Below are positions 5,698 through 29,500 of a stretch of 59,272 nt of DNA, piece after piece. This DNA is from Punctularia strigosozonata HHB-11173 SS5. Its lineage: Eukaryota > Basidiomycota > Agaricomycetes > Corticiales > Punctulariaceae. Position 1 is the first letter of the stretch. Each line of letters opens with the position of its first letter. Location: assembly GCF_000264995.1 (NCBI RefSeq), contig NW_006767452.1, positions 365,037 to 424,308 on the forward strand, in the 5' to 3' direction. Both the position numbers and the translations under genes were made by a program. The notes under the pieces were generated by a model. It had not been told where the DNA came from. It was given only the letters and a program-made list of their open reading frames with translations, and searched no databases.

Positions 5698-7949
5698 TCA
5701 GACCTGAGAGACCCTCTGCTTTGCCAGCCAAGATTTCTCCTCGCTGCTAAGGCCCTGTTCGTAAGGACCGTAGAGAGGTATGGCGTTCGTGAATTCGTTG
5801 CGCATGATATCGGCATGTCGGGCAGAACGAGGCTTGATCGAGCATTTGAATGGGTTCGGGCCAGTGCCAACTCCCTGAAAGTGTGCACTCAGTTAAACCG
5901 GCGTCTATATAGAAAGCGGTACGTGCCTGGCTGTAGTCCCAAAGGTTAACGGGCTCTGGCTTTCCAGTGGCATCATTGACAAGAGGAGCGAAGTTGAACG
6001 CCCAGATGAGATCCATAGTATTAATTCTCTGTGATTTATGGTGAGTTCACCTGAATAAGCGAAAGGACATAAAGCAATCGGAACATACAATCGTATTATC
6101 AGCGAGGTGTCGCCCGGGGCAGATTCTCTGTGAAGTGAGATCAGCAAGGATCTACCGACGAGTTCGCTACGACTCACCCTTCCGGCACCGAAAGGCATTG
6201 AGTGTCTGAAATCGGATGGGTCGACATCCGACTTGGTGCCATATTCAGACTTCAGATACCGATCGGGGCTGAACATTTCCGGATCCTCAAAGACGTCGGA
6301 ATCATGATAGATACCCCCTATCATCTCGTCAAGCGCTGAATAGTATCCGAGCTTCAGAAACCTACATAAATTGACGATCATCGTGGAACCGCGTGGAATC
6401 AGATATCCCTCGTACTGCCGACTTCTGCTTAGTACTGCCTGTGGAAGCATCTAGAAGATTACTCACGGTCATATCCTCCAACGTAGCATGTGGCACGCCC
6501 AAGGGCGCGACCGGTCTGAAACGATGTACTTCCTTGATTGTCGCCTTCGAAGGTGTGATAAGCGCAATGCGAGGGTTACCATGAGTTTCCCACACCTGCA
6601 AATATGGCATAGCATTGAAGTCCTCAAAAGTAGGGACACGCTCAGGGCCGACAATGCGGTCAATCTCCTCGTGCAAGCGTTTTTGTACGTCGGGAAAGGC
6701 TGCCATCATGAGTACAAAAGATTGCATAAACGACGCGCTTGTGTCGCTCCCCGCCTCCAGAAGTAAGCCACCGAGATATCTGGACGTAGCGGGTGTAGGT
6801 GAGCATGGGAGCGGTCTCTCGGCAGAGTCTACTCACGTCGTCATTTCTCTCGTCAAACCATATTCCCCTTCTTTACGTATGACTCGATCGATGAAAGGCT
6901 CCTGCTCAGAGCCTTCTCCGTTCGCGACTCTGTTCTCGCAGTGCTTGACAAGGCGGAGATATAGAGCGCGTTGCAAATGACGGAGTCGCTTGACCAACGA
7001 TTTCCAAGCCGCCCATCTCTCGGGAACAAGTTTCAGGACGGGTATCATGTCTACCGGAGGGTGAGCACCGGGGTCAAACAACTCAGACGTGAGTTGCACG
7101 ACATCAAAGAGCGACGATATTTCCTCCGATTCATAACTAATTATGTGTCAATTATCGCATGGAGAAGGTGAAGTAGACTCCGACCTTGGAGCACGTTGTC
7201 CATACAGAACCGACAAAGCGACAGAGTTGGATGCACGTCTGAGGTGCCACCACGCCCGCTGCAGAATCATTCGGTAAGCTAGGCAACGCTAGTGAGGATG
7301 GCTTTTTATACCTGAGGTGTATTCATTATGTCGTATACGAGCTGGAAGGATTCTGCTCGCTGTATAGGAACATGCTTCATCGCACTCTGAGGTGTAAGAA
7401 TTGAATTTGCAGTCTTGCGCAATACACGCCATTCGTCGGCTGCATACTGTCAGTTCAATCCAACCAGTGGATTATTGAAGTGAACGTACAGTAGTGTGCG
7501 AGTGCTAGGTTGACTGCGTCACCGACAATCTGGGAGCCAAAGTGGCTCACAGGTCTGTCAACGGTGATTGCACTTTGTTTCTCCATGAGCTCTCGAACGG
7601 CTTTCGCGCTGGTGATAACGATGGTGATCCCATTTCCCAGCATGATCTGCAAGCAATGATTGCTTTGAGCATCAGTTTACACGAATAAAAAGGCTCCTTA
7701 CTGAGTATACGCCTCCGTAGATTCGCGCCCATTCTGTGAGGCTGTAATGACCTTGAGCAATGGTCGCAAGATGAAGAGAGCGTATGTGGATTACCCAAGA
7801 TAGGCATGATCTCTGGGGAAAATATGTGCATTGCCGAGAATCGGGACCGTCGGTGGTCCAGGAGGTAGCCCAACTCGTCTGCTGCCAGTTTTTGAAGCTC
7901 TCCAAAGGACCCAAGAAGCAATAAGAGCAGAGGCTATGAGGGTAATCAT
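5698..7949 (-). CDS. Cytochrome P450 monooxygenase 1
   Basis: Haem-thiolate monooxygenase, probably ER-anchored. The N-terminus is one hydrophobic helix (MITLIASALIASWVL) followed by the hinge GLPPGPPTVPILGN. Further motifs are the I-helix AGSDTS, the K-helix ExxR in IKEVHRFRP, the PERF-like MFSPDRYL, and the haem loop FGAGR joined by an intron to RICPGRHLADNTI, which supplies the axial Cys. The last exon ends with KSWLAKQRVSQV and TGA at 5698-5700. About ten short introns are present. I chose the ATG at 7949 over the one at 7976 because a TATA-like box sits 45 bp upstream, exactly as in the paralogue at 9.9-12.2 kb. It resembles fungal P450s usually labelled O-methylsterigmatocystin oxidoreductase-like. 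The substrate cannot be told. Confidence 0.9.
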
Positions 7950-9947: not shown

Positions 9948-12200
9948 CTAAGAGAACCTTTGTTGAGCGAGCCATTCCTTCTCTGCGTTGCTGAGCCCCT
10001 CTTCGTATGGGCCATACAAAGGTATGGCAGACTCGAATTCGCTGCGAATGAGATCAGCGTGCTGAGAAGAACGAGGCTTGATCGTGCATTTGTATGGTTT
10101 CGGGCCAGTACCGAGGCCCTGGATACGCTGTCAGTGTGCGGACCCCTCTCAAGACAGCAACAGGATATACCTCGCTGTAGCTCCACAGGTCAAGGGGCTC
10201 CGGCTTTCCGGTCGCTTCATTTATGGGAGGACCAAAGGTGAAGCCCCAAACCAGGTCCATGGTGTTGACCCTCTGAAGTTACGTTGAGCCCAGTGAACGA
10301 TCATCAGGAATGTGAACTCACAATCGTGTTGTCTACGAGGTGCCTCCCGGGACATATTCTCTGGATGTATGGTTGGTAATCACCGAAAGCAATGCCCACA
10401 ATATTCACGCACTCTACCGAATCCAAAGGGCATCGTGTGCTTGAAATAAGAGGGGTCCACGTCCGGCTTGGTGCCAAATTCGGACTTGAGATACCGTTCA
10501 GGATTGAACATCTCTGGGTCGTCGTAGACGTCGGGGTTGTGGTAGATACCCCCTGATATCTCATTAGTACCCAGGCTCTTGCGTGCTGCTTGGAAGTATC
10601 ACTGACACATATTGACGATGATCGCGGAACCGCGAGGAATCAAATATCCATCATACTATACGATATGCTCAGTAAACGCTGCAGCCATACCAAGGAAAGT
10701 GCGTACAGTCAGATCCTCCAAAGCAGCGTGCGGCAAACCGAGGGGGGCGACCGGCCTGTAGCGATGGACCTCTTTGATTGTTGCCTGTCGGCGTTCGCCG
10801 CGTTTAGATACGACAGGAACCCGCGTAAGAGTAAGATGCGTACCTGCAGATACGGCAGATTATCGAAATCATCGTATTCAGGGACACGCTTCGAGCCCAC
10901 AACACGGTCCATCTCCTCGTGCAACCGCTTCTGAGCATCCGGGAAAGCTGCGATCAGAAGTACGAAGGACTGCATGAACGATGCGCTCGTATCACTGCCC
11001 GCTTCAACCAGAGTACCGCCGAGATATCTGCATAACGCAGAGGCAGAGCAGTGAGCGAAGAGAAGGATCCAATTATGGGAGAACCACTCACGCAGTCCTC
11101 TCCCTGTTGAGACCGTAGTCCGCCTGCCTACGCACAACTTTATCGATGAACGGCTCATCTTCGGATGCTTCCGAGTTCGTCACCCTGTCCTCAGACTGTT
11201 GGAGAAGGCGGAAGTATAAAGCCCGTTGCATGCTGCGAAGGCGCTTGACCATGGTCTTCCATCGCGCCCATCTCTCCGGGACGTATTTGAGAATGGGGAA
11301 CATGTCAACGGGAGGGTGAGCACCGGGATCTAGCAATTCCCCTACGAGGTCGACGACGTCAAACAGTACCGAGAGATCATCCGACTCGTATCTATCCAGC
11401 GCACATCTCAGGGAATGTATACCAGATAATGGGAAGATTCTGACCTTGGTGCACGCCTCCCGTACAGAATCGACAAGGCAACAGAGTTGGATGTCCGTCT
11501 GAGGTGCCACCAGGCTCGCTGTCCAAATCATCAGCTCGTGAAGTGCGACCGAGGATACGCATTCAACTTACCTCCGGCGTATGAAGAAGATCATACACAA
11601 GCTGGAAAGATTCCGCTCGCTGTATCGGAACGTGCTTTGCGGCACTTTGCGGCGTAAGAATGGAGTTGGCTGCCTTGCGCATCAAACGCCAATCCTCAGC
11701 TACATGCTGTCAGCGTCATGTCGAACGAAAGAGAATGTTAACAGACAGTATGGAACAAATGCCAGGTTCACTGCGGTCCCCACGATCTCAGCTCCAATGT
11801 GACTTGGCGGACGGTCGACGGTGACTGCGCTCTGTTTCTCCATGAGTTCGAAAGCCGCTTTCGCGCTGGTGACGACTATAGTGGGCCCGTTTCCTAGCAT
11901 GACCTAGCAATCATTGTGATGATCAACGTTACGTCAACTGATGGGTCTTCACATACCGAATACACGCCTCCGTAAGTTCGTGCCCATTCCGAGAGTCTGC
12001 AATGCTTGGATCAAAGGAAGAGAGTGTAGCCGCACGTGTACGTACTGGAGAAACGCGTGATCCTTCGGAAAGATATGCGCATTTCCAAGGATAGGTACCG
12101 TGGGCGGTCCAGGAGGGAAGCCAGTTCGTCGACTCCCAAACCTCAAAACCCTGGAAACAAGGAACAGTAAAAGGCCAGCTGATACGAGTAGGATGATCAT
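9948..12200 (-). CDS. Cytochrome P450 monooxygenase 2
   Basis: Tandem paralogue of the gene at 5.7-7.9 kb, with the same exon pattern and strong similarity throughout. It has an N-terminal anchor (MIILLVSAGLLLFLVSRV), hinge TGFPPGPPTVPILGN, I-helix EAGSDTSASF, ExxR in IKEVHRYRP, and a haem motif split by an intron (MPFG, then RICPGRHLVDNTI). The C-terminus is KPYKCTIKPRSSQHADL, ending GLSNAEKEWLAQQRFS and TAG at 9948-9950. The frame is also open from an ATG at 12284, but the TATA box at 12245-12254 lies inside that extension, so 12200 is preferred. Intact by inspection. It is likely an ER-membrane oxygenase of secondary or xenobiotic metabolism; the substrate is unknown. Confidence 0.9.
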
Positions 12201-13562: not shown

Positions 13563-15542
13563 TCACATTCTATCTTCGCGGTCTCCTTCTGCGCCTAGCC
13601 TGTCACAATCCCACCTATCCTCCGGCAGTTTCACCGCGACGCACAGCGCGCCGATCGCGAAGGCGTCCAAAATCGCGTACGCCGCGTACCCGCCCAGAAC
13701 ATCGTGCTCGACAGAGAACGCAAACAGCGACGTAGACGCCGCGGGGCCGACCGCTCTTACCACCGACGCTGCCCAGCGAACAACACACCGTGTGCCGTCA
13801 GCCTCGTCTCGATAATTCGGAAGGGAAAGGGGATACTATCTCTCACCGGTCGTTTGAGCGAGCCCGTTCACCGCGCCCAAGCACCGCTTGCTCGGCGCCG
13901 CGCTCGTAATGTACACGTAAATCACGCCTGCACCCCCCGGTACGTACCGACTCTCAGCATCGTCGGATCTCAAGACCAAAATCTAAACAGAACACAAGCC
14001 GCACGCACCGTAACACATATCCCTCACGACGCACAACCCCAGCTCGACCACCAACGCCGCCCACACGCCCGCCGCCATCCCGCCGCTCCTTCTCGCGAGC
14101 GCGTTCATCGCGGGCATCCCCGCGAAGATCGGCAGGAAGGCCGCGATGCCCGACACGAACGTGCGCCTCATGCCGAGCTTGCGGATCACGCGGGGGAGGA
14201 GCGAGGCCTGGACGATGCCGTTGCCGAGGCCGTAGGCGCCCATGACGAGCCCGATCGCGCGCGGGGAGAGGCCGAGGCCGCCGTGGGGGACGGGGGAGGC
14301 GTAGAAGAGCGGTTGGAGGGCGAGGAGGGCGATGTCGAGGAGGGCGAGGAGGGCGTAGTTCGCGAGGGAGACGAGGACCGGACGCGTGAGGACGCTCTTG
14401 AGCGGGGGAGGCTTGCTCTCGTCTACGCCGTCGCTGGGGTCACCACGAGTCGGGGATTCCGGTGAGGTATCGGAGGCCTTTTTGTGGCGGGGAAGCGTCT
14501 GCGATGCGGCGAGATCGGGGGTTCAGAAATGTGTTTCGACGCCGCGTTTAGATAGCAGTGTAGCCCACCTCTTTGAGGACGAACAAGGTGAGGATGAACA
14601 CGAACGCTGAGAACCCGGCCGAGACGGCGCAAGGAAGGAAGTACGGATACTTCCTCCAGAATCGGCCGCCGAACGTCTTCGGCCACGCGTCGTGCGGCCT
14701 CGAGAGCGTTCCGCCTATGAAGGGCCTGCGACGCAACGAGTTGTAAGGTCAGGATCCACCTGCTCGGGTATATGCGCGTATACATGGGGGAACATCAAAG
14801 AGAGAGAGCTCTCACCCTACGGTGACGCCCACGGCCCATGTCAGGGGCAGCAGCGCGAACGCCTGCGCGGCGTTGGACGGGTCGGTCAGCTCGCAGACCA
14901 TGCTTTTCATCACGCCCGTGTTCCCGTTCAACGCTCCGTTCAAGCATCGGCTGTCATAAAAAAAAAGAAAAAGTTAGCGTTGAAGTCTTCGGGAGACGAG
15001 GGAAGAGGAAACCTGACGACGAGCAGCCAGAAGGTGGTCGATAATCCAAAGAACACCATCGAGAGGCAGAGGCCAGAGAGTCCGATCAGCAGAACGGGTT
15101 TACGGCCTATGCGATCGGAGAGGCGGCTCCATTGTAACACCGTCAACGCTTGCGTCGCGAAGAACAGCGTTTGCTGGGAGCGTAAGGTCGGTTCAGGGGC
15201 CTGCTGAGACCATGCGACAGACTCACGATCATGCCAGCGTAATATCCGACCTTTCTCTTATCTCCCTTGATGATGTCCAGCGTCCCGACCAGCTGTGATG
15301 TCTCGTCAGACGCCAGGCTATGAGAAGCAGAGGAAGTGGTGCACCTCGTATATGAAGGGGTATATGCACTGACTCGTCATGGGCTCCGCAAGCTGCACTA
15401 GCATGAGCGTCGCGATCTGCACTTTCGGTAGGGGCGTTTGCTTGTTTTCCGTGGGGGGCGCGTCGACATCGTCGTGCGGCAGGAGCGTGGTTCGTTCGTC
15501 ATGACGGCCCTGCTTGTCTCTGCGAGTGTCTCGCCTAGACAT
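13563..15542 (-). CDS. MFS transporter 1, DHA1-like
   Basis: Twelve-helix major facilitator of the drug:H+ antiporter type, at a cell membrane. The charged N-terminus (MSRRDTRRDKQGRHDERTTL) leads into PLPKVQIATLMLVQLAEPM (TM1) and CIYPFIYE. Later exons give GYYAGMI, QTLFFATQALTVLQWSR, the signature SDRIGRKPVLLIGL between TM2 and TM3, RCLNGALNGNTGV (TM4), IGGTLSRPHDAWP, then after a charged loop the second half with LNYALL-like helices (SLANYALLALLDIALLALQP) and GAVNGLAQTT. An intron with donor gtgcgt at the CYG|GVIYVYITSAAPS junction explains an apparent stop at about 13.99 kb. It shares gene structure with the transporter at 17.4-19.2 kb. The substrate is unknown. Confidence 0.88.
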
Positions 15543-15987
15543 GTCGGGAGTTGTGGTTGGAGAGCAGACCGAAGCTCAGTAGATAGTCTTTGTGGTGACG
15601 TCGCGAACCCCCCGACGGACTGACGAGGTTCGCAAGCCCCACAGGGCGTTCGCAGACGGGAAGGGAAGAGGATGACGCCATCACGATTGTTCTCCAGCTG
15701 CAAGCGCTTGAGGCTTGGGGATATTGAGATATTCGGGCGAGATAACACGCTGGTCTCCTCGGAACACTAGCCAGGGATGAAATGCGAGGACAAACATGCA
15801 TATGGACGATGCTTGGCCAAGATCATGATGCCGATCGCGTCGTGCCGCCGGGTCGAGCCTATCGCGCCAGTCCTGCAAGCAATTGCGACTCGACCGCCAT
15901 ACCACTTATCATAAGTATACTCGCGCGTTCGTCCCGCTTGCACCGACCTCCTAGCTTCATACTCTTTACATCCTAGCCGACCCCGTG
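15543..15987. promoter_or_regulatory. Divergent promoter, MFS1 / dehydrogenase
   Basis: A 445-bp spacer between the minus-strand MFS1 start and the plus-strand dehydrogenase start, so it probably carries both promoters. I see no clear TATA box for either. Short open frames here are chance. Confidence 0.4.
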
Positions 15988-17233
15988 ATGCCGCCCCGCC
16001 CCGACTTCACCACCATCCTCGTCGTCGGCATCCCCTTCCACCCCCGCCTGCGCACCCTCTTACCCTCCTCCACGCTCCTCCACCACCCCGACGGGCGTCG
16101 CGAGCCCGTTCCAGATGCCGAGATGCTGCAAGCGGACGCGATCGTGGGCAGCATGCCCGCCAACCTCCAGCGGCGCGCGCAGGCCCCCCGCTTGAAGTTC
16201 GTGCAGCTGCACAGCGCGGGCGCCGACGCCGACCTCGGGCGGCCGATCTGGGACGAGGTGCAGCAAGGCGGGGGCGAGCCGGAGGTGGTGATGGCCACCG
16301 CGGCCGGAGTGCACATCGGGTGCATACCGCAGGTGAGCTGCAAACATCGCTACTGTCGTCGTCTCAAAGTATGTTCAGGCTGAAGGATGAAGGGCGTGTA
16401 GTACTTCATCATGACGACCCTCGCGCTGTACCACAAGCTGCAAGAGCAAATCATCCCCACCCAGACCGAGAAACGCTGGCCGTCCGACCAAGAAGTCGGC
16501 GGACGGATGTTTATCAAGGAGTTGCGCGGGAAGACCGTCGGGATCCTGGGCTACGGCCAGGTACGTACGACTCCCCATCCCTGAGCGCAATCTCGTCGCT
16601 CAACGTCGTTTCCTCTTTCAGATCGGGCGTGAATCCGCAAGATTAGCACATGCATTCGGCGCAAAGATCATCGCCGCCAACTCCTCCGGCCAACGAAAGC
16701 CTCAAGAAGAGTTCCGTCTCCCGGGCACCGGCGACCCGGATGGCAGGTAAACACACCGCAACGTTACCCCCCTACATCATCTAATTACCCCCTCCAGCCT
16801 CCCCTCAGCCTGGTACTCCACCTCGGACCCCACCTCCCTCGCGACCTTCCTCTCCCTCACCGACGTCCTCCTCCTCGCCCTCCCCTCTACCCCCTCCACC
16901 AAGCACATCCTCGACGCCTCCACCCTCGCCCACCTCAAGCCCTCCTCCATCCTCGTCAACATCGGGCGCGGCCCGCTCGTCCACACGCCCTCGCTCCTCG
17001 CCGCGCTCGACCAGGGCAAGCTCGCCGGCGCGGCGCTGGACGTGACCGATCCCGAGCCGCTCCCTGACGGGCACGCGCTCTACGGCCGTCGGAACGTGAT
17101 CGTGACGCCGCACCTGAGCGGCCGGACGGAGGGGTACTGGGACTACGCGATGGATATCTTGGAGGAGAACGTCGCGCGGTGGAGGGAGGGCCGGGAGCTC
17201 GTGAACGTCGTCGATCCCAAGAAGGGGTACTAA
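15988..17233 (+). CDS. D-isomer-specific 2-hydroxyacid dehydrogenase
   Basis: NAD(P)-dependent oxidoreductase acting on 2-hydroxy or 2-keto acids, soluble. The start is MPPRPDFTTILVVG. Introns lie at 16333-16401, 16561-16620 and 16747-16797. The Rossmann fingerprint GKTVGILGYGQ joined to IGRESARLAHAFGAKI is clear (GxGxxG). The family signatures follow: DVLLLALPSTPSTKHI, then LKPSSILVNIGRGPLVHTPS with the catalytic-region Arg/Gly, then GAALDVTDPEPLPDGHALY, then TPHLSGRTEGYW with the catalytic His. The predicted length of about 355 aa is usual. It sits between two paralogous transporters; whether it works with them is unproven. The stop is TAA at 17231-17233. Confidence 0.93.
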
Positions 17234-17357
17234 ACGCAGCGTTTGCTGTGACATGTGGAGATGCGTTTGTATGCGAATAGATGCGTAGATGAATAGATGA
17301 CCATGCCACAAATCGTTCGCCTTCGTTACTCTGAATCGATACGCCAACGTCTATACC

Positions 17358-19160
17358 TCACTCCTCCTCACTGTCCTCCTCCTTCCATCCATTCTTCGGA
17401 AGCTGCACCGCAGCCACCAACGCCGCCGCCGCCATCGCCACCAATACCACATACACCGCGTACCCTCCCATCAAATCGTGACTGACCGAGAACGCAAACA
17501 GCGACGTCGACAACGCAGGCCCGACCGCGCGCACGACGCTCGCCGTCGTCTGCGCGATCCCGTTCACCGCGCCCAGCGTCCGCCTCGACGGCGCCGCGTG
17601 CGTCACGTACACGAATATCGTCCCGTACGCGAGCTCCATCACCATCGCGCACGTCAGCTGCACCGCCAGCACCGCCCACACCCCCGGCCCCACCCCCCCT
17701 CCTCCCCCTCCTCCCCCTCCTTCTCCATCGCTCCTCCGCGCCAGCACGTTCATCACGGGGAACAGCGCGAACAATGGCACGAACGCGAGCATGCCCACGC
17801 GGAACACGGGCCCCAGGCCGAACGCGCGCACGATCTTGGCCAGGAACAGCACCTGAAATCCGCCGTTCGCGAGGCCGAAGGCGCCCATGATCAGCCCGAT
17901 CGCGCGGGGGGAGAAGCCGAGGCCGCCGGCGGAGACGGGCGTGGAGAGGAAGAGCGGCTGGAGGGCGCAGTACGCGATGTCGAGCGTCGCGAGCAGGCCG
18001 TAGTTGAGCACGCTGACGACGACGGGGCGGGTGAGCAGAGCGCGGAGGGAGGCGTCTGCGTCGGTCGGGGAGGGGTGCGGGTGTGGAGGCAGGGCGGGTT
18101 CGCCCTCGTGGAAGGCGACGGCGCCTTCGGCGGAGAGGTCGCGCTCGAGGTCGGTGTAGTCGGAGGGTTTTGAGGGTTCGGGGCGATGTTCCTTTTGTAC
18201 CGTCTGGGAGAAAGGTCAGCGATCGCTTGGGTGGCTGTAGGAGAGTGCGTACCTCCTTGAGGAAGAGGAGAACGATGACGAAGACAAACGCGGAGAACAC
18301 GGCCGAGACAAAGCACGGCAAGAAGTAGGGATACTGCTGCCAGAACGGATGCGAGAATACGTGGGGCCATGTATCGTGAGGCCGCGAGAGCGAGCCGCCA
18401 ATCATCGGTCTGGTGCAACAGTTCATTGCATGTACGATCTTTGGCAGGCAAACGCGCTCACCCTATGGATACGCCGGCTGCCCATGTTACGGGCATGAGA
18501 GCGAACGCTTGGGCGATGTTGCTGGAATCGCTTATTTCCCCGATCATGCTCTTCATGACCCCGATATTACCGTTGAGCAGCCCGTTGAGGCAGCGACTGT
18601 AAGCGTTTGGTCTACCTCTGCATCCAGCGCGCATACATCCTAGCGTACCTTAAAACCAGGGTCCAGTATGTTCGTGATAGGCCGAAGAAGATCATGGAGA
18701 AGAATAAACCGGACAAGCCGATGAGGAGTACGGGCTTGCGTCCTATGCGATCGGATAGGCGACTCCATTGCAAGACGGTGAGAGCCTCCGTAGCGAAGAA
18801 GAGCGATTGCTGAACGAAGCTTCAGAAACGAGCATACGGCGGAGAAGAAGGACGTACGATCAACCCCGCATAATACCCGACCTTACTCTCATCGCCTCCC
18901 GTGATGTCCAGGGTACGCACAAGCTACGACGATGTCAGGCGGGCCTCCTCGAACAGGGCGCATATACTCACGTCGTTGATGAAAGGATATATGCACTGGC
19001 TCATGATCGGCTCTGCCAGTTGCGCCAGCAGGATGATGCTCATCTGCACCTTGGGCAGCGGCGTAGGCCTCCTCTTCTGCTTCCCATTCCGCGGCGACAA
19101 CAGAGCGGTCTCCTCAGACGCCGGGGTCGTCGTCCCGTCCTCCTCGTAGCTCGAAGTCAT
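17358..19160 (-). CDS. MFS transporter 2, DHA1-like
   Basis: Paralogue of MFS1. It begins MTSSYEEDGTTTPASEETAL, then PLPKVQMSIILLAQLAEPI (TM1), CIYPFIND, GYYAGLIQQSLFFATEALTV, SDRIGRKPVLLIGLSGLFF, RCLNGLLNGNIGVMKSM, IGGSLSRPHDTWP and YFLPCFVSAVFSAFVFVI. After a charged loop (EHRPEPSKPSDYTDLERDL) the second half is intronless, with ALQPLFLSTPVSAGGLGFSP and GAVNGIAQTTASVVRAVGP. A run of nine glycines sits in the loop near 17.70-17.73 kb, encoded by GGGGGA/GGG-type repeats. The acidic tail is KEEDSEEE. Only 124 bp separate it from the dehydrogenase, tail to tail. The very long minus-strand frame at 17368-18426 is a GC-rich shadow of this gene. Confidence 0.9.
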
Positions 19161-22821: not shown

Positions 22822-24163
22822 CTAGGTATACAGGCGCTTCGGCAGCATGGTTGAGGTGTATATGCCGGCAAGCACTACCGCGCACAAAACCCAATAGACC
22901 AGTGTCCCGCGCAGAAGGTTCTTTTCGATGGATGCAGCAAATAGCGAGGAAGCAGCGGTTGGCGCGATCGCGCGCATGGTAGATGCGGTCGTCTGCGCGA
23001 GGCCGTTGGCCGCGCCGAGCGCGCCGCGAGGCGCTCCCGTGTTGACGAAGAGGAAGACGCATCCTGAGTTGAGAGACATGAGAATTGGGCGCTTCTAGCG
23101 GGATGCGGGGTGTCGGAAAACTTACCATAACCCATGTATGCAACCGTGTATACCGCGAGCTGAATCACCAGCACGAGCCATGTCCACTTGTCAATATGAC
23201 CTGCCCGCTGCGCCAGGAACGCCATCAAGGGGAAGGCCGAGAGACATACGAGGTAGCAGGCGAAGGATGCGATGTACAGCGTTCGGGGCCCAACCTTCCG
23301 AACCAGGGGCGGAAAGACGAATATCTCCACGATGCAGTTCACGACGCCCCACACGCCGATAATGATTCCGATGGTGAACGTGCTAAACCCCAATCCTTGT
23401 GCGCCAATGGATGTGGAGTACATGAGTGGCTGGAGCACCTCATAGCACTGGTCGACAAATGCAATGAACCCATAGTTGAGAAGCGGGTAAAGGACCCTCG
23501 GTACAAACAACGAGCGGAACCCAGGAACTTGCGGGGACGGAATGACTGCTTCAGACGAAGACAAAGTTTGAGCTGTCTGTACTTGGGACGGCAACTCGGG
23601 CAGGTCCGTTATAGGTGTTGCGGCCTTTTCGTCGCCCTGAGTCACAGGTTCCGCGGGTGAAGATCCTGCACTGTGCGATCGTCGGAGAGTCTGAAATACA
23701 ACGTCATCATACTACTACGCCGCGAGAAACCCTGATAACGCACCTCACGAAGACCAAGGAAGGCAAATAGAAAGGCGCTCATGGAAACTGAGGCAACGGT
23801 GATGCAAGGCAGGAAATAGGGATAATCCGTCAACAGCCGACTACGCCCTAGTGTGTCCGGCCATCGTTGAGCAGGGTCGGCGAGAACCCCGCCAATGATA
23901 GGTCCGAGCGTCGTGCCGAGGGACCATATCGTGCCGAAGAAGGCGTATCCGAGCGCAGCGTTGGTTTCATCGGTCATTTCGGCTGTCACACACTTGACAA
24001 CGCCAATGTTCCCGTTGAGCATGCCTTGAGCGATACGGCTGAGGATAATCTCCCAGTACGTTTTAGACAGGCCAAACCCGACCATAGCCAGGGTCAACCC
24101 AAACAAGCCGGTCAGGATCACCGGTCGCCGACCGATTCTGTCGGAGAGTTTTCCCCACTGAAG
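22822..24163 (-). pseudogene. MFS transporter 3, C-terminal part cut by inversion
   Basis: This carries everything from LQWGKLSDRIGRRPV (the MFS signature after TM2) to the end (MLPKRLYT, TAA at 22822). It includes GMLNGNIGVVKCVTAEMTDE, IIGGVLADPAQRWP, YFLPCITVASVSMSAFLFAF, a loop, LNYGFIAFVDQCYEVLQPL and GAANGLAQTTASTMRAIAP. Introns at LGLRE|TLRR and MGYG|CVFLF are intact and no frame break occurs inside. There is no N-terminus: reading upstream in frame meets TGA at 24167-24169 and no TM1. The missing exons lie on the opposite strand at 24795-25202, and their last codon joins this piece in frame. It would be a DHA1-like transporter. As arranged it cannot give a full protein. Confidence 0.85.
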
Positions 24164-24222
24164 GAGTCATCGCCGCGCTCCGAGGAAGAGGGCAGATTGG
24201 TGAGGTCAATAATGTCTGCCAT
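24164..24222 (-). pseudogene. Displaced 5' end of zinc-binding protein gene
   Basis: ATG at 24220-24222 opens 19 codons plus two bases (MADIIDLTNLPSSSERGDD). This is acidic and Ser-rich with a DIIDLT start. It abuts the MFS piece at 24163 out of frame and stops soon after. The two leftover bases complete a Ser codon with the base at 25203, and the frame then continues into QTEFSESHDERHSD of the zinc-binding protein. I therefore read it as that gene's original first codons. Confidence 0.75.
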
Positions 24223-24794
24223 TATGTGAGAACGCCAAAATGAAGTAGTGTTCCGAAGATTGGGTCACAAAGCAACTCTCGAGCGCGCTCTTGCAACCAG
24301 AGTTGGCGCAATCTGCATCGGAGTCTGAAATCAAGCTCGTATTACACGATTAATCGGTTCTCCCACGGTGACCCGGCGTGCCTCGTCTTGCCAACTGTCC
24401 TCGTCTTGCCATCTCGGGAAACGGCACAACTCGGGACTTCCTCACTAATCCACTAATGCATCCACGGAACCCTGCGCGTTGTTCTAGGCCGCTCGCTCCT
24501 CACCCGTTGGAATATCTTGCCGCGGTCTCCGCACCAACGTGTGCCGCGGCTGGAAGTGGACAAGCATGAATTCTCCGCCATATGTCGTAACGCGCTTAAC
24601 TGCATTCGCGATTTTTACGCTCCCTTCATGGGCCCTCCGTGTGCCGATCGATTACGCCTATGCTCGATAAAGTCTGGGTTGCATGCGCATCAGGGTTGAG
24701 CACCTCAACTTTCCATGGTGGTGGTGGTTTCAGCTGATGAGCGTATAAAATCCGGAGCCCAGCGACACGCAATTGGATAGTAAGCCTCCCATCC
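24223..24794. promoter_or_regulatory. Former bidirectional promoter, MFS3 / zinc protein
   Basis: 572 bp between the displaced zinc-protein ATG (minus) and the MFS3 ATG (plus). It lies wholly inside the inverted segment. There is no coding signal. A TATA box for the MFS3 start is at 24744. Confidence 0.5.
24744..24750 (+). promoter_or_regulatory. TATA box of MFS3
   Basis: TATAAAA, 51 bp before the ATG at 24795. Confidence 0.6.
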
Positions 24795-25202
24795 ATGTCC
24801 CAATCTACTCTGCCTTTGGCTGAAACTACCCGTGAACAGGCCGAGGATCGATCCCCGAATGTCGCGGCGGTGGCACTGGACAGCCCTCGACCAAGACTGA
24901 CCCCTTTCCCGAAAATTCAACTCGCCATCTTTTTGTATTTACAGGTATCTTCCTTTCCGCTCTTGTGAGAATGATACTTACGCTAAAGTCCCTAGCTCGC
25001 CGAGCCCCTGACGTGCACCGTCATATATCCTTTCGTCAACCAGCTAGTTCGGAGAACTGGCGTGACTGGCGGGGATGAGAAGCGAACTGGATACTATGCC
25101 GGCCTTACAGTAAGGCTCCCTCCATATACTCGAAATGAACTGCGCTGACAGGTTATCCGACTGTAGCAATCGCTGTTCTACGCTAGCGAGGCGGTTTGTG
25201 TG
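24795..25202 (+). pseudogene. MFS transporter 3, N-terminal exons cut by inversion
   Basis: Exons 24795-24944, 24996-25109 and 25167-25202 with good GT-AG borders. The protein begins MSQSTLPLAETTREQAED, then PFPKIQLAIFLYLQ joined to LAEPLTCTVIYPFVNQ (TM1), GVTGGDEKRTGYYAGLT, then QSLFYASEAVCV. Paralogues read QSLFFATEALTVLQWSRLSD at this point. Here the homology stops dead at 25202 and the sequence becomes the zinc-binding gene in another frame. The continuation is on the minus strand from 24163. It keeps its own TATA box. Confidence 0.85.
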
Positions 25203-25761
25203 TCAGACAGAGTTCTCGGAATCACACGACGAACGCCATTCAGACGGAGTAGAGGTTGACGAAGAGGAGCCACTCGACGCGCCCTCGCTAGAAAGGCTCA
25301 GGGAAGCTGTGGTTTCCGTTCCGGAAAAGACGCTTCGAGAAATAGTGCTCGATCTTATCGAGGACATGCCATCAGTCGGACACGCTCTCTTCAAAGAGTT
25401 AGTGACGGTTCAACACGGAGAGCTCGTGCAAAGATGGGAAATATGCCGTAAATGTGGCGACGATTTCGATGTCAGCGCAACACAGGTAGAAGGATCATGC
25501 CAGTTCCATCCGGGTATGTTTTACCGAAGAATACGGGGAGATCAAACATTGACGTAAGCCTTAGGTGTACTGGAAGTCAGGGAGGAGGAATTCGTTGACT
25601 GGGACGAAGACTGCCATGGGCCAATGGACACGCCTGAAAATAGGAGAGACTACCCGGAGAATTTCAGTTGGACGTGCTGTGATGGCAGTGGCCTGTCTGA
25701 AGGCTGCGTGTCGAGCACACATACCGCGAGCGGCCCCGCAAGAAAACGCAAGCGAATATGA
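25135..25761 (+). CDS. CHORD-like zinc-binding protein, 5' end replaced
   Basis: True family sequence starts at 25203 (QTEFSESHDERHSD, EEEPLDAPSLERLREAVV). The zinc-ligand pattern is WEICRKCGDDFDV, then CQFHPG, an intron at about 25518-25564 (gtatgt...ccttag), then VLEVREEEFVDWDEDCHGPM, FSWTCCDGSG, GCVSSTH and a basic tail (PARKRKRI) that could be a nuclear signal. The CxFHPG...WxCC order resembles CHORD zinc domains, but the exact family is not certain. The frame is open from ATG 25135, so translation would now add about 22 residues read out of frame from MFS intron and exon DNA. The native start appears to be the fragment at 24220-24222. Confidence 0.7.
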
Positions 25762-26576: not shown

Positions 26577-29500
26577 CTAAAACAGGTTGTATGCTTTACC
26601 AAGGGGAAGCCGCTCTGCGGGCTCGATATCCGCGAGCACGCCGTCTGCATGCACCTCATAGTTCTCCGGGTCCACCTTCATTTCGGGCGTGGCGTCGTTC
26701 CACTTCATGTCCTTCTTCGTGACCGCTCGACACCCCGTAACAGGTTCGAACCGTTTTGATAGTTTATAGGACGCCACGGTGCCAGACGAAATGGATATTT
26801 CAGACACGAACGAGATAGAGTTGAGCGCCGCTGAAGCCGGGTAAGAGCCCCACATAGGTTTGGAGTAGAACGGCTGCACGGTAGGGATGGATGCGTTCGC
26901 GTCACCCATCTGCGACATAGACGTCAATGGTCGAAATTCTGCCAACTAGAGGAGACATACCTGCGACCAGGCGATTACGCCAGACTTCAGTACCATAGAG
27001 GGCTTGGAGCCGAAGTTCTCTGGCTTCCAAAGAACGAGGTCTGCCAGTGTACCTGTAGCAACCTGACCAACCAGGTGGCTCATGCCATGTGTGATAGCAC
27101 TGTAAACTATGATCAACCAAAACCCTGATCCCGTAAGAACGGCACCAACGGATTGATGGTGTATTTTGAAATGTAACGCTTGACCCTCCCATTGTCCACG
27201 CCTTCGCTGTCACCAAGAGCCGAGAGCGGCCCCCTGAATTCGCGCATTTTACTGGCCGTCCTCCATGTACGACTGACAACTTCTCCTACGCGGCCCATGG
27301 CCTGCGAGTCCGAACTGATCATGGAGATGGCGCCGGTATCATGCAACACATCTTCCGCAGCGACTGTCTCGGCTCGGATTCGCGATTCGGCGAACGCAAG
27401 ATCTTCGGGGATAGACTTGTCGAGGTGGTGGCAGACCATGAGCATCTACCCACGGGCTCAGATGAGCACTCTCGGTGTGACAAAATGAGACGGACTGACA
27501 TCCAGATGCTCGTCAAGTGTATTCTTCGTGAAGGGACGAGTCGGGTTGGTTGAAGAAGGCAGTACATTGTTCTGACCACAGACGACGATGATGTCTGGCG
27601 CATGTCCACCACCTGTACGAAGACCGTTCAGATTCGTATCAACAATGCCAATGCCTAGCCCACTTACCTGCACCTTCTGTGTGGTATGTATGAATTGTAC
27701 GACCTCCGAAGGCGGCAATGGTGCCTTCAGACTGCCCCATCAGATACAATCCAGCCATACTATGATTCCCCGAACTCACTTTCAACGAAACCACTCTCGT
27801 TCAAGGTGTCTGTGTGAATGTTGACCTGGGAAGATATGAACGTGAGTACTTCTCTTTATGAAGGTTTAGGTTGCGCTTACCTGCACGTCGTACTTGTCAC
27901 CGACGTCCAGCGCCTTGACAATAACGGCTGGAGTAGTGCCCCAATCCTCGTGGAGCTTCAACCCGCAAGCTCCCGCTTTCACGATCTCTTCCACCGCCGT
28001 CGTCCCCGCATCGTTGCCTTTCCCGGTGAAGCCGAAGTTCATCGGAAGACCATCCGTAGCTGCCAACATGTGACGCATATAGAAGGGAGAAGGAGTGCAC
28101 GTTGTGGCATTCGTCCCCGCACTAGGCCCGGTACCGCCACCGATCATGGTTGTCGTCCCCGCAGCGAGCGCTTCGTTAACCTGTTGGGGACATATGTAAT
28201 GAACGTGGGCATCGATAGCGCCCGCTGTGAGGATCATTTTTTCCCCAGCGATGACCTCCGTGGACGAGCCGATGACGAGGGACGGGTGCACGCCTGCCAT
28301 GACGTCTGGGTTGCCCGCCTTGCCAATTCCGGCGATATAACCGTTCTTGACACCGACGTCCGCCTATACCCGCAACGGTAAGGCCAGGGAGATAACCGAT
28401 GGAAAGGGGAGGACAGACCTTGTAGATACCCGACCAGTCGACAATAAGCGCGTTTGTGATCACAAGGTCTAGGGTCTCGGACGACGATCGATTGGTCGCT
28501 TGTCCCATCCCTTCCCGTATGGATTTGCCTGGAAGGTGTGAGACGGGTATTGTGTCGAGCCCGCGTAGATGCACTGACCTCCGCCGAACTTCACTTCGTC
28601 GCCGTATACCGTCTATCGGATAGGCTTGAGCACCCGTGATGTTTAAGACAAGCCAACAACCGACCTCGTCCCTCTCCACCTCAATCCACAACGCTGTGTC
28701 GCCAAGACGTACCCTGTCGCCCACAGTAGGCCCAAACATAGCGATATATGCATCCCGACCGATGGACGTATCTTCCGACACCTCGAGCGCCCCGGGTTCA
28801 GGAGCATACCCGAAGCCCTTTTGGACTAAACCCCGGATTATGTCGTCGGTGCGTGCGAGATCGAACACGCCCGACGCGAGGTTGTTTCCACCCGAGATAA
28901 TCTTCGCCCCGGCTATGGTGCATAGCGTGACCGTCTTGACATCTCCCGGTTCGAAGCGCACTGCGGTGCCAGCGGCAATATCCAGGCGCTTGCCGTAGGC
29001 TTTGCCGCGGTCAAAGGACAGCGCCTTGTTCGTCTCAACGAAGTGGTAGTGCGAGCCAATCTGGTTTCGAGGAATGATGAGACTCGTACCGCAGACCGCA
29101 GCGGGATAGTGGAAATATGGCAATGCTACGCACCTGGATGGGTCTGTCCCCGTTATTGGTGACGCGCAGCCTGATGCGTTCCCTCCCTTTGTTTATCACG
29201 ATGCTTTCCTTGCGCGCGATGATGGCGCCGGCGACTTTCTCCCGTGCGAAGTCCGCGGGGTCGGTGGACGGGAACGCGTCTTCAGGTGGCACGGGGAGGA
29301 AAGATCCGTAGAGAGCGGCTGCGATGTCTCCAGATTCCGTGCAGACAGGATCGTGCACCGTCACCAGGAACACGCTGTCCGACGAAGATATTAGGCCTTG
29401 AACAACGCCAGAGTCTGAAGCACGCACCCATCAGGAAACGTCCCCTCGACTTGTATCTCATGTAGGAGGCTGACAACGTCAGGGAGGACGTGCCTTCGGC

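What the first reader, a model, noticed from the sequence alone, without database searches (positions are those of the whole stretch)
24164..25202. A single 1,039-bp inversion splits two divergent genes and swaps their 5' ends
Seen directly: MFS exons 1-3 (ending SEAVCV) on the plus strand stop at 25202, and the rest of the same transporter (LQWGKLSDRIG onward) starts at 24163 on the minus strand. The zinc-binding protein body starts at 25203 on the plus strand, and an orphan ATG fragment (MADIIDLT...GDD) ends at 24164 on the minus strand. Flipping the segment restores both reading frames at the exact base, with 59 nt plus one base completing a Ser codon and a whole-codon MFS join. Two independent in-frame repairs from one flip are very unlikely by chance. 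No decay is visible in either gene, so the event is recent, polymorphic, or an assembly artefact. If biological, it abolishes a transporter and a zinc protein together.
Basis: partly seen in the sequence, partly recalled or inferred. Interest (0 to 1): 0.85.

Follow-up and report, generated by a model that had tools for sequence, protein, structure and literature searches.

The report
Small inversion breaking two fungal genes
In this draft fungal genome a stretch of about one thousand bases is turned around relative to its neighbours, which separates the beginnings of two neighbouring genes from their bodies; it is either an ordinary small DNA inversion or an assembly mistake, and only reads or PCR can tell which.

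Summary
The first exons of an MFS transporter end on the plus strand at 25202; the rest of that gene starts on the minus strand at 24163. Two paralogues in the window run through the homologous point with no base between the halves. Of 14 paralogous places, 9 show both halves, and in 9 of 9 they lie on one strand. The zinc-protein half is consistent but weak alone: no relative was found, and 22% of random sites offer as good a start. Both breakpoints lie in unique sequence without inverted repeats, so a recombinase switch or repeat-mediated inversion is unsupported. No undisturbed second copy was found in the assembly. A 5,373-base run of N, a gap or a withheld stretch, ends just before the window; the window holds no N. 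Best reading: one balanced, blunt-ended inversion of a divergent promoter segment, recent if real. I cannot separate a real inversion (about 0.5) from an orientation error (about 0.45). That both functions are lost is inference.

The parts
24164..25202 (.). Segment inverted relative to its flanks (1,039 bases); one match in the genome, itself
24795..25202 (+). MFS transporter, start: exon 1 (24795-24944), intron (24945-24995), exon 2 (24996-25109), intron (25110-25166), part of exon 3 (25167-25202); covers the first two membrane helices (helix assignment recalled)
   Evidence: gene model by my reading of splice signals and paralogue matches, no RNA evidence
22840..24163 (-). MFS transporter, remainder, beginning just before the DRxGR motif; MFS_1 over the Pfam cut-off in both stretches scanned; the end of the gene was not determined
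24164..24222 (-). Orphan start fragment (ATG plus 18 codons and 2 bases), assigned to the zinc-binding protein by phase only
25203..25760 (+). Zinc-binding protein body, two exons with an intron at about 25514-25564; Cys/His pattern like CHORD (likeness recalled)
24223..24794 (.). 572-base spacer between the two start codons, read as a divergent promoter (inference); TATAAA at 24744 on the + strand
24163..24164 (.). Left breakpoint; unique sequence, no inverted homology with the right one beyond chance
25202..25203 (.). Right breakpoint; unique sequence
18250..19145 (-). MFS paralogue 1 (matched part only), contiguous at 18774/18773
14566..15437 (-). MFS paralogue 2 (matched part only), contiguous at 15138/15137

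Best explanation
The ancestral order was two divergent genes, an MFS transporter on the minus strand and a CHORD-like zinc protein on the plus strand, sharing a spacer of about 570 bases. A 1,039-base piece holding that spacer and both gene starts has been turned around. Shown: the two transporter halves lie on opposite strands, and two paralogues are contiguous at exactly that point. Shown: both breakpoints lie in unique sequence without inverted repeats. Inferred: the zinc gene's start went with the same piece. Inferred: two double-strand breaks whose ends were rejoined bluntly (end joining), recently enough that neither gene has visibly decayed. Inferred consequence: the transporter's promoter now drives a short truncated product ahead of the zinc body, and the zinc gene's start runs out of frame into the transporter body, so both proteins are probably lost or truncated.
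For: Pieces and coordinates. Zero-gap contiguity in two paralogues. 9 of 9 paralogues with both pieces collinear; 5 further places showed only the second half and say nothing. No N in the window, so no visible scaffold gap at either junction. Unique breakpoint sequence. No strand-split gene in two other families as a control: among exon neighbours closer than 1.5 kb, P450 21 same strand and 2 opposite, both of which I read as separate convergent genes because they repeat profile positions (on the 105 matches, which scored 92 of 266 candidates); AA9 13 same strand and 0 opposite (on the 28 matches).
Against: No reads, second haplotype or relative was available. Neither gene shows decay, which a misoriented contig explains equally well. 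A 5,373-base N run ends one base before the window; if it is a scaffold gap rather than a withheld stretch, orientation errors are possible in this record. No lost or added residue shows at the transporter junction, which is cleaner than many end-joining events (recalled). The zinc half rests on phase and a start codon only.
Confidence: 0.5

Rival explanations
1. Assembly artefact: a short contig or graph edge of about 1 kb was placed in the wrong orientation and the ends were joined without a gap.
For: An N run just outside the window, which may be a scaffold gap; no decay visible in either gene; lossless transporter junction. Orientation errors of short contigs are described for Hi-C scaffolding (PMC6719893, passages seen), but how this genome was assembled is unknown.
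Against: No N at or near the breakpoints; no repeat found at either breakpoint that would end a contig; misplaced contigs usually leave N or overlap remnants (recalled). No other strand-split gene in the samples: 9 of 9 transporter paralogues with both pieces, 13 of 13 AA9 neighbour pairs, 21 of 23 P450 neighbour pairs with the other 2 read as separate genes.
Confidence: 0.45
2. Programmed invertible promoter segment, switching the two genes between an intact and a broken state.
For: The segment carries both gene starts and a promoter-like spacer.
Against: No shared inverted word of 7 or more bases within 40 nt of the breakpoints, two of 6; the longest in-register match is 4, reached by 43.5% of random pairs. 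The left and right cuts fall inside coding sequence. No recombinase family appeared in the part of the window scanned, but no dedicated search was made.
Confidence: 0.02
3. The genes are natively split and the transporter messenger is made by trans-splicing.
For: The halves complement each other without gap or overlap relative to the paralogues.
Against: Bases beyond the break are TC after 25202 and TC before 24163, not GT and AG; the two window paralogues have no intron there.
Confidence: 0.02

Closest known systems
Small balanced (micro-)inversions formed by end joining (recalled)
   Same: Balanced, about 1 kb, no repeats at the ends, gene starts separated from bodies
   Different: The transporter junction appears lossless; reality of the DNA not shown
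Scaffold orientation errors of short contigs (PMC6719893, passages)
   Same: Turn of a short piece within a larger record
   Different: No N and no repeat at the ends; that paper concerns Hi-C scaffolding, and whether Hi-C was used here is unknown
DHA1-type MFS transporters (Pfam MFS_1 PF07690; nearest solved sequence MFSD10, 6s4m); the label DHA1 is recalled
   Same: Second half matches MFS_1 and animal and bacterial transporter sequences
   Different: Substrate unknown; the 25 NCBIfam matches shown of 56 are far below their cut-offs
CHORD zinc-binding domain (PF04968)
   Same: Cys/His positions of the body (likeness to CHORD recalled) and a weak profile match
   Different: Below the curated cut-off, 13.7 against 24.6 bits, E 0.099

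Membership tests
Balanced inversion | Segment on the opposite strand relative to the ancestral order, nothing lost at the transporter junction | tested here: met
   Transporter halves against two contiguous paralogues and 9 of 9 collinear ones; residue level only
Balanced inversion | Present in the DNA of the strain | not testable with these tools
   No reads, PCR or second assembly
Balanced inversion | Second gene start and body meet at the other breakpoint | tested here: inconclusive
   Phase fits; a random site fits in 22%; no relatives found
Site-specific invertible element | Inverted repeats at both ends | tested here: not met
Site-specific invertible element | Recombinase gene nearby | not tested
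   25 Pfam queries, 20 open frames of the window plus 5 pieces of the two genes, gave no recombinase, but most frames were not scanned and no dedicated search was made
Inversion by repeat recombination | Inverted repeat copies at the breakpoints | tested here: not met
Pfam MFS_1 (second half of the transporter) | Score over the curated cut-off | tested here: met
   62.7 and 39.7 bits against 33.4
Pfam CHORD (zinc body) | Score over the curated cut-off | tested here: not met
   13.7 bits against 24.6

The most novel reading that the evidence does not exclude
A divergent promoter segment that flips as a unit in this fungus, leaving some nuclei with both genes intact and others with both broken, without the inverted repeats that known invertible segments use.
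Probability: 0.02. Interest if true: 0.85.

Novelty: new member of a known kind. Interest (0 to 1): 0.25.

Why it matters
If real, it is a clean example of one short inversion breaking two genes by exchanging their starts, caught before visible decay, and it would show how such events look at the base level in a fungus. If an artefact, it is a warning that gap-free orientation errors can sit in draft genomes and destroy gene models; a paralogue-contiguity check of the kind used here could find others.

Tried and rejected
Identification of the organism: no 5.8S match (which scored 39 of 1,266 candidates); one AA9 exon's best solved match is PDB 5nns, which I recall as Heterobasidion irregulare, and the matched stretch of that sequence finds at best 55% identity in this genome, so it is probably not that species.

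Relatives of the zinc protein: only itself in the own genome; none in viral contigs (body exon 1), prokaryote contigs (exon 2) or solved structures. These collections hold few or no fungal genes, so this says little.

Genome-wide MFS_1 scan scored only 9 of 216 candidates, so it was not used as a control. Paper searches on small inversions and assembly errors were seen as listings only; from PMC6719893 and PMC5596377 I saw passages only, and nothing was taken from the second. No claim is made that such an inversion is absent from print.

The odds were judgements and are unchanged.

Full report
What is there. It begins at the first base after a run of N from 359664 to 365036 of that record and itself contains no N. 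The N run may be a scaffold gap or a stretch that the operators withhold; the tool's note allows both. A transporter's start exons lie on the plus strand and end at 25202. Its remainder lies on the minus strand from 24163. A zinc-protein body lies on the plus strand from 25203. A short ATG fragment lies on the minus strand, ending at 24164.

Is it more than chance? For the transporter, yes. Two paralogues on the minus strand of the same window match both halves. The peptide homologous to the end of the first half stops at 18774 (15138 in the second paralogue), and the peptide homologous to the start of the second half begins at the very next base, 18773 (15137), on the same strand. The end-peptide matches are short and weak alone (E 0.014 and 0.026; only the first passed E 0.05); it is their place directly before the second-half match that counts. 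The second half finds 14 other places with a match; 9 of these also show an early piece, and in 9 of 9 both are on the same strand and in order, while 5 show the second half only. Among those seen with both pieces, only the window gene is divided between strands. For the zinc protein the evidence is thinner. The start fragment fits in phase and has a good start context, but a random site in this window offers an in-frame ATG within 20 codons without a stop in 22% of 20,000 trials. I found no relative to check it.

Breakpoints. No shared inverted word of 7 or more bases lies within 40 nt of the two breakpoints; two of 6 bases do. The longest in-register inverted match is 4 bases, a value reached by 43.5% of 5,000 random pairs at the same distance. 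The two 200-base stretches around the breakpoints match nothing else in the genome at E up to 10, and no 13-mer within 60 nt of a breakpoint recurs in the window. The bases next to the two cuts differ, so neither cut can be slid (from the sequence). This speaks against repeat-mediated inversion and gives no support to a recombinase switch. It also gives no reason why a contig should end there.

Effects. As printed, the ATG fragment runs 34 codons, 19 of them its own, to a stop at 24120. The transporter start runs 18 codons beyond 25202 to a stop at 25257. The zinc frame is open upstream to 25114 with an ATG at 25135, but that ATG lies in the transporter's second intron (25110-25166). Loss of both functions is therefore likely but inferred, and three transporter paralogues remain on the same record (their integrity was not checked).

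What the genes are. The second half of the transporter scores above the MFS_1 cut-off in both stretches scanned. Its nearest solved sequences are MFSD10 and bacterial transporters such as NorA and MdfA, and the 25 NCBIfam matches shown of 56 are far below their cut-offs. Its substrate is unknown. The zinc body shows Cys/His positions that resemble CHORD as I recall it, and a sub-threshold CHORD match.

Real or artefact? For a real inversion: no N at the junctions, unique sequence on both sides, and no other strand-split gene in the samples examined. In those samples 21 P450 neighbour pairs lie on one strand and 2 on opposite strands, the latter repeating profile positions as two convergent genes would (one search scored 92 of 266 candidates); 13 AA9 neighbour pairs lie on one strand and 0 on opposite strands; and 9 of 9 MFS paralogues with both pieces are collinear. 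For an artefact: the record may be a gapped scaffold, neither gene shows decay, and the transporter junction loses nothing. Orientation errors of short contigs are a described failure of Hi-C scaffolding (PMC6719893, passages). I put a real inversion at about 0.5, an artefact at about 0.45, and all else at about 0.05. These are judgements, not computed values.

Verdict. The biological claim is undecided. The kind of event is known, so interest is modest unless reads show both orientations in one strain.

Noticed in passing
window 27869-29192, minus strand: Urease gene pieces (beta and alpha domains) lie convergent to the zinc protein; both scanned pieces are on one strand.
   Followed up: no
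window 14566-19145, minus strand, and G000:C20:323357-324129: Three further paralogues of the broken transporter on the same record.
   Followed up: partly
window 6365-7138 and 10712-11179, minus strand: Two cytochrome P450 matches near the MFS group; possibly a metabolic cluster.
   Followed up: no
L043 66-478 and L044 1-413: The first 413 bases of record C1 are 99.8% identical to C20:66-478, so a repeat lies at the start of both records.
   Followed up: no
window 25114-25257: Two reading frames overlap here as printed: transporter exon 3 with its run-on to 25257, and the upstream-open zinc frame with ATG 25135.
   Followed up: partly
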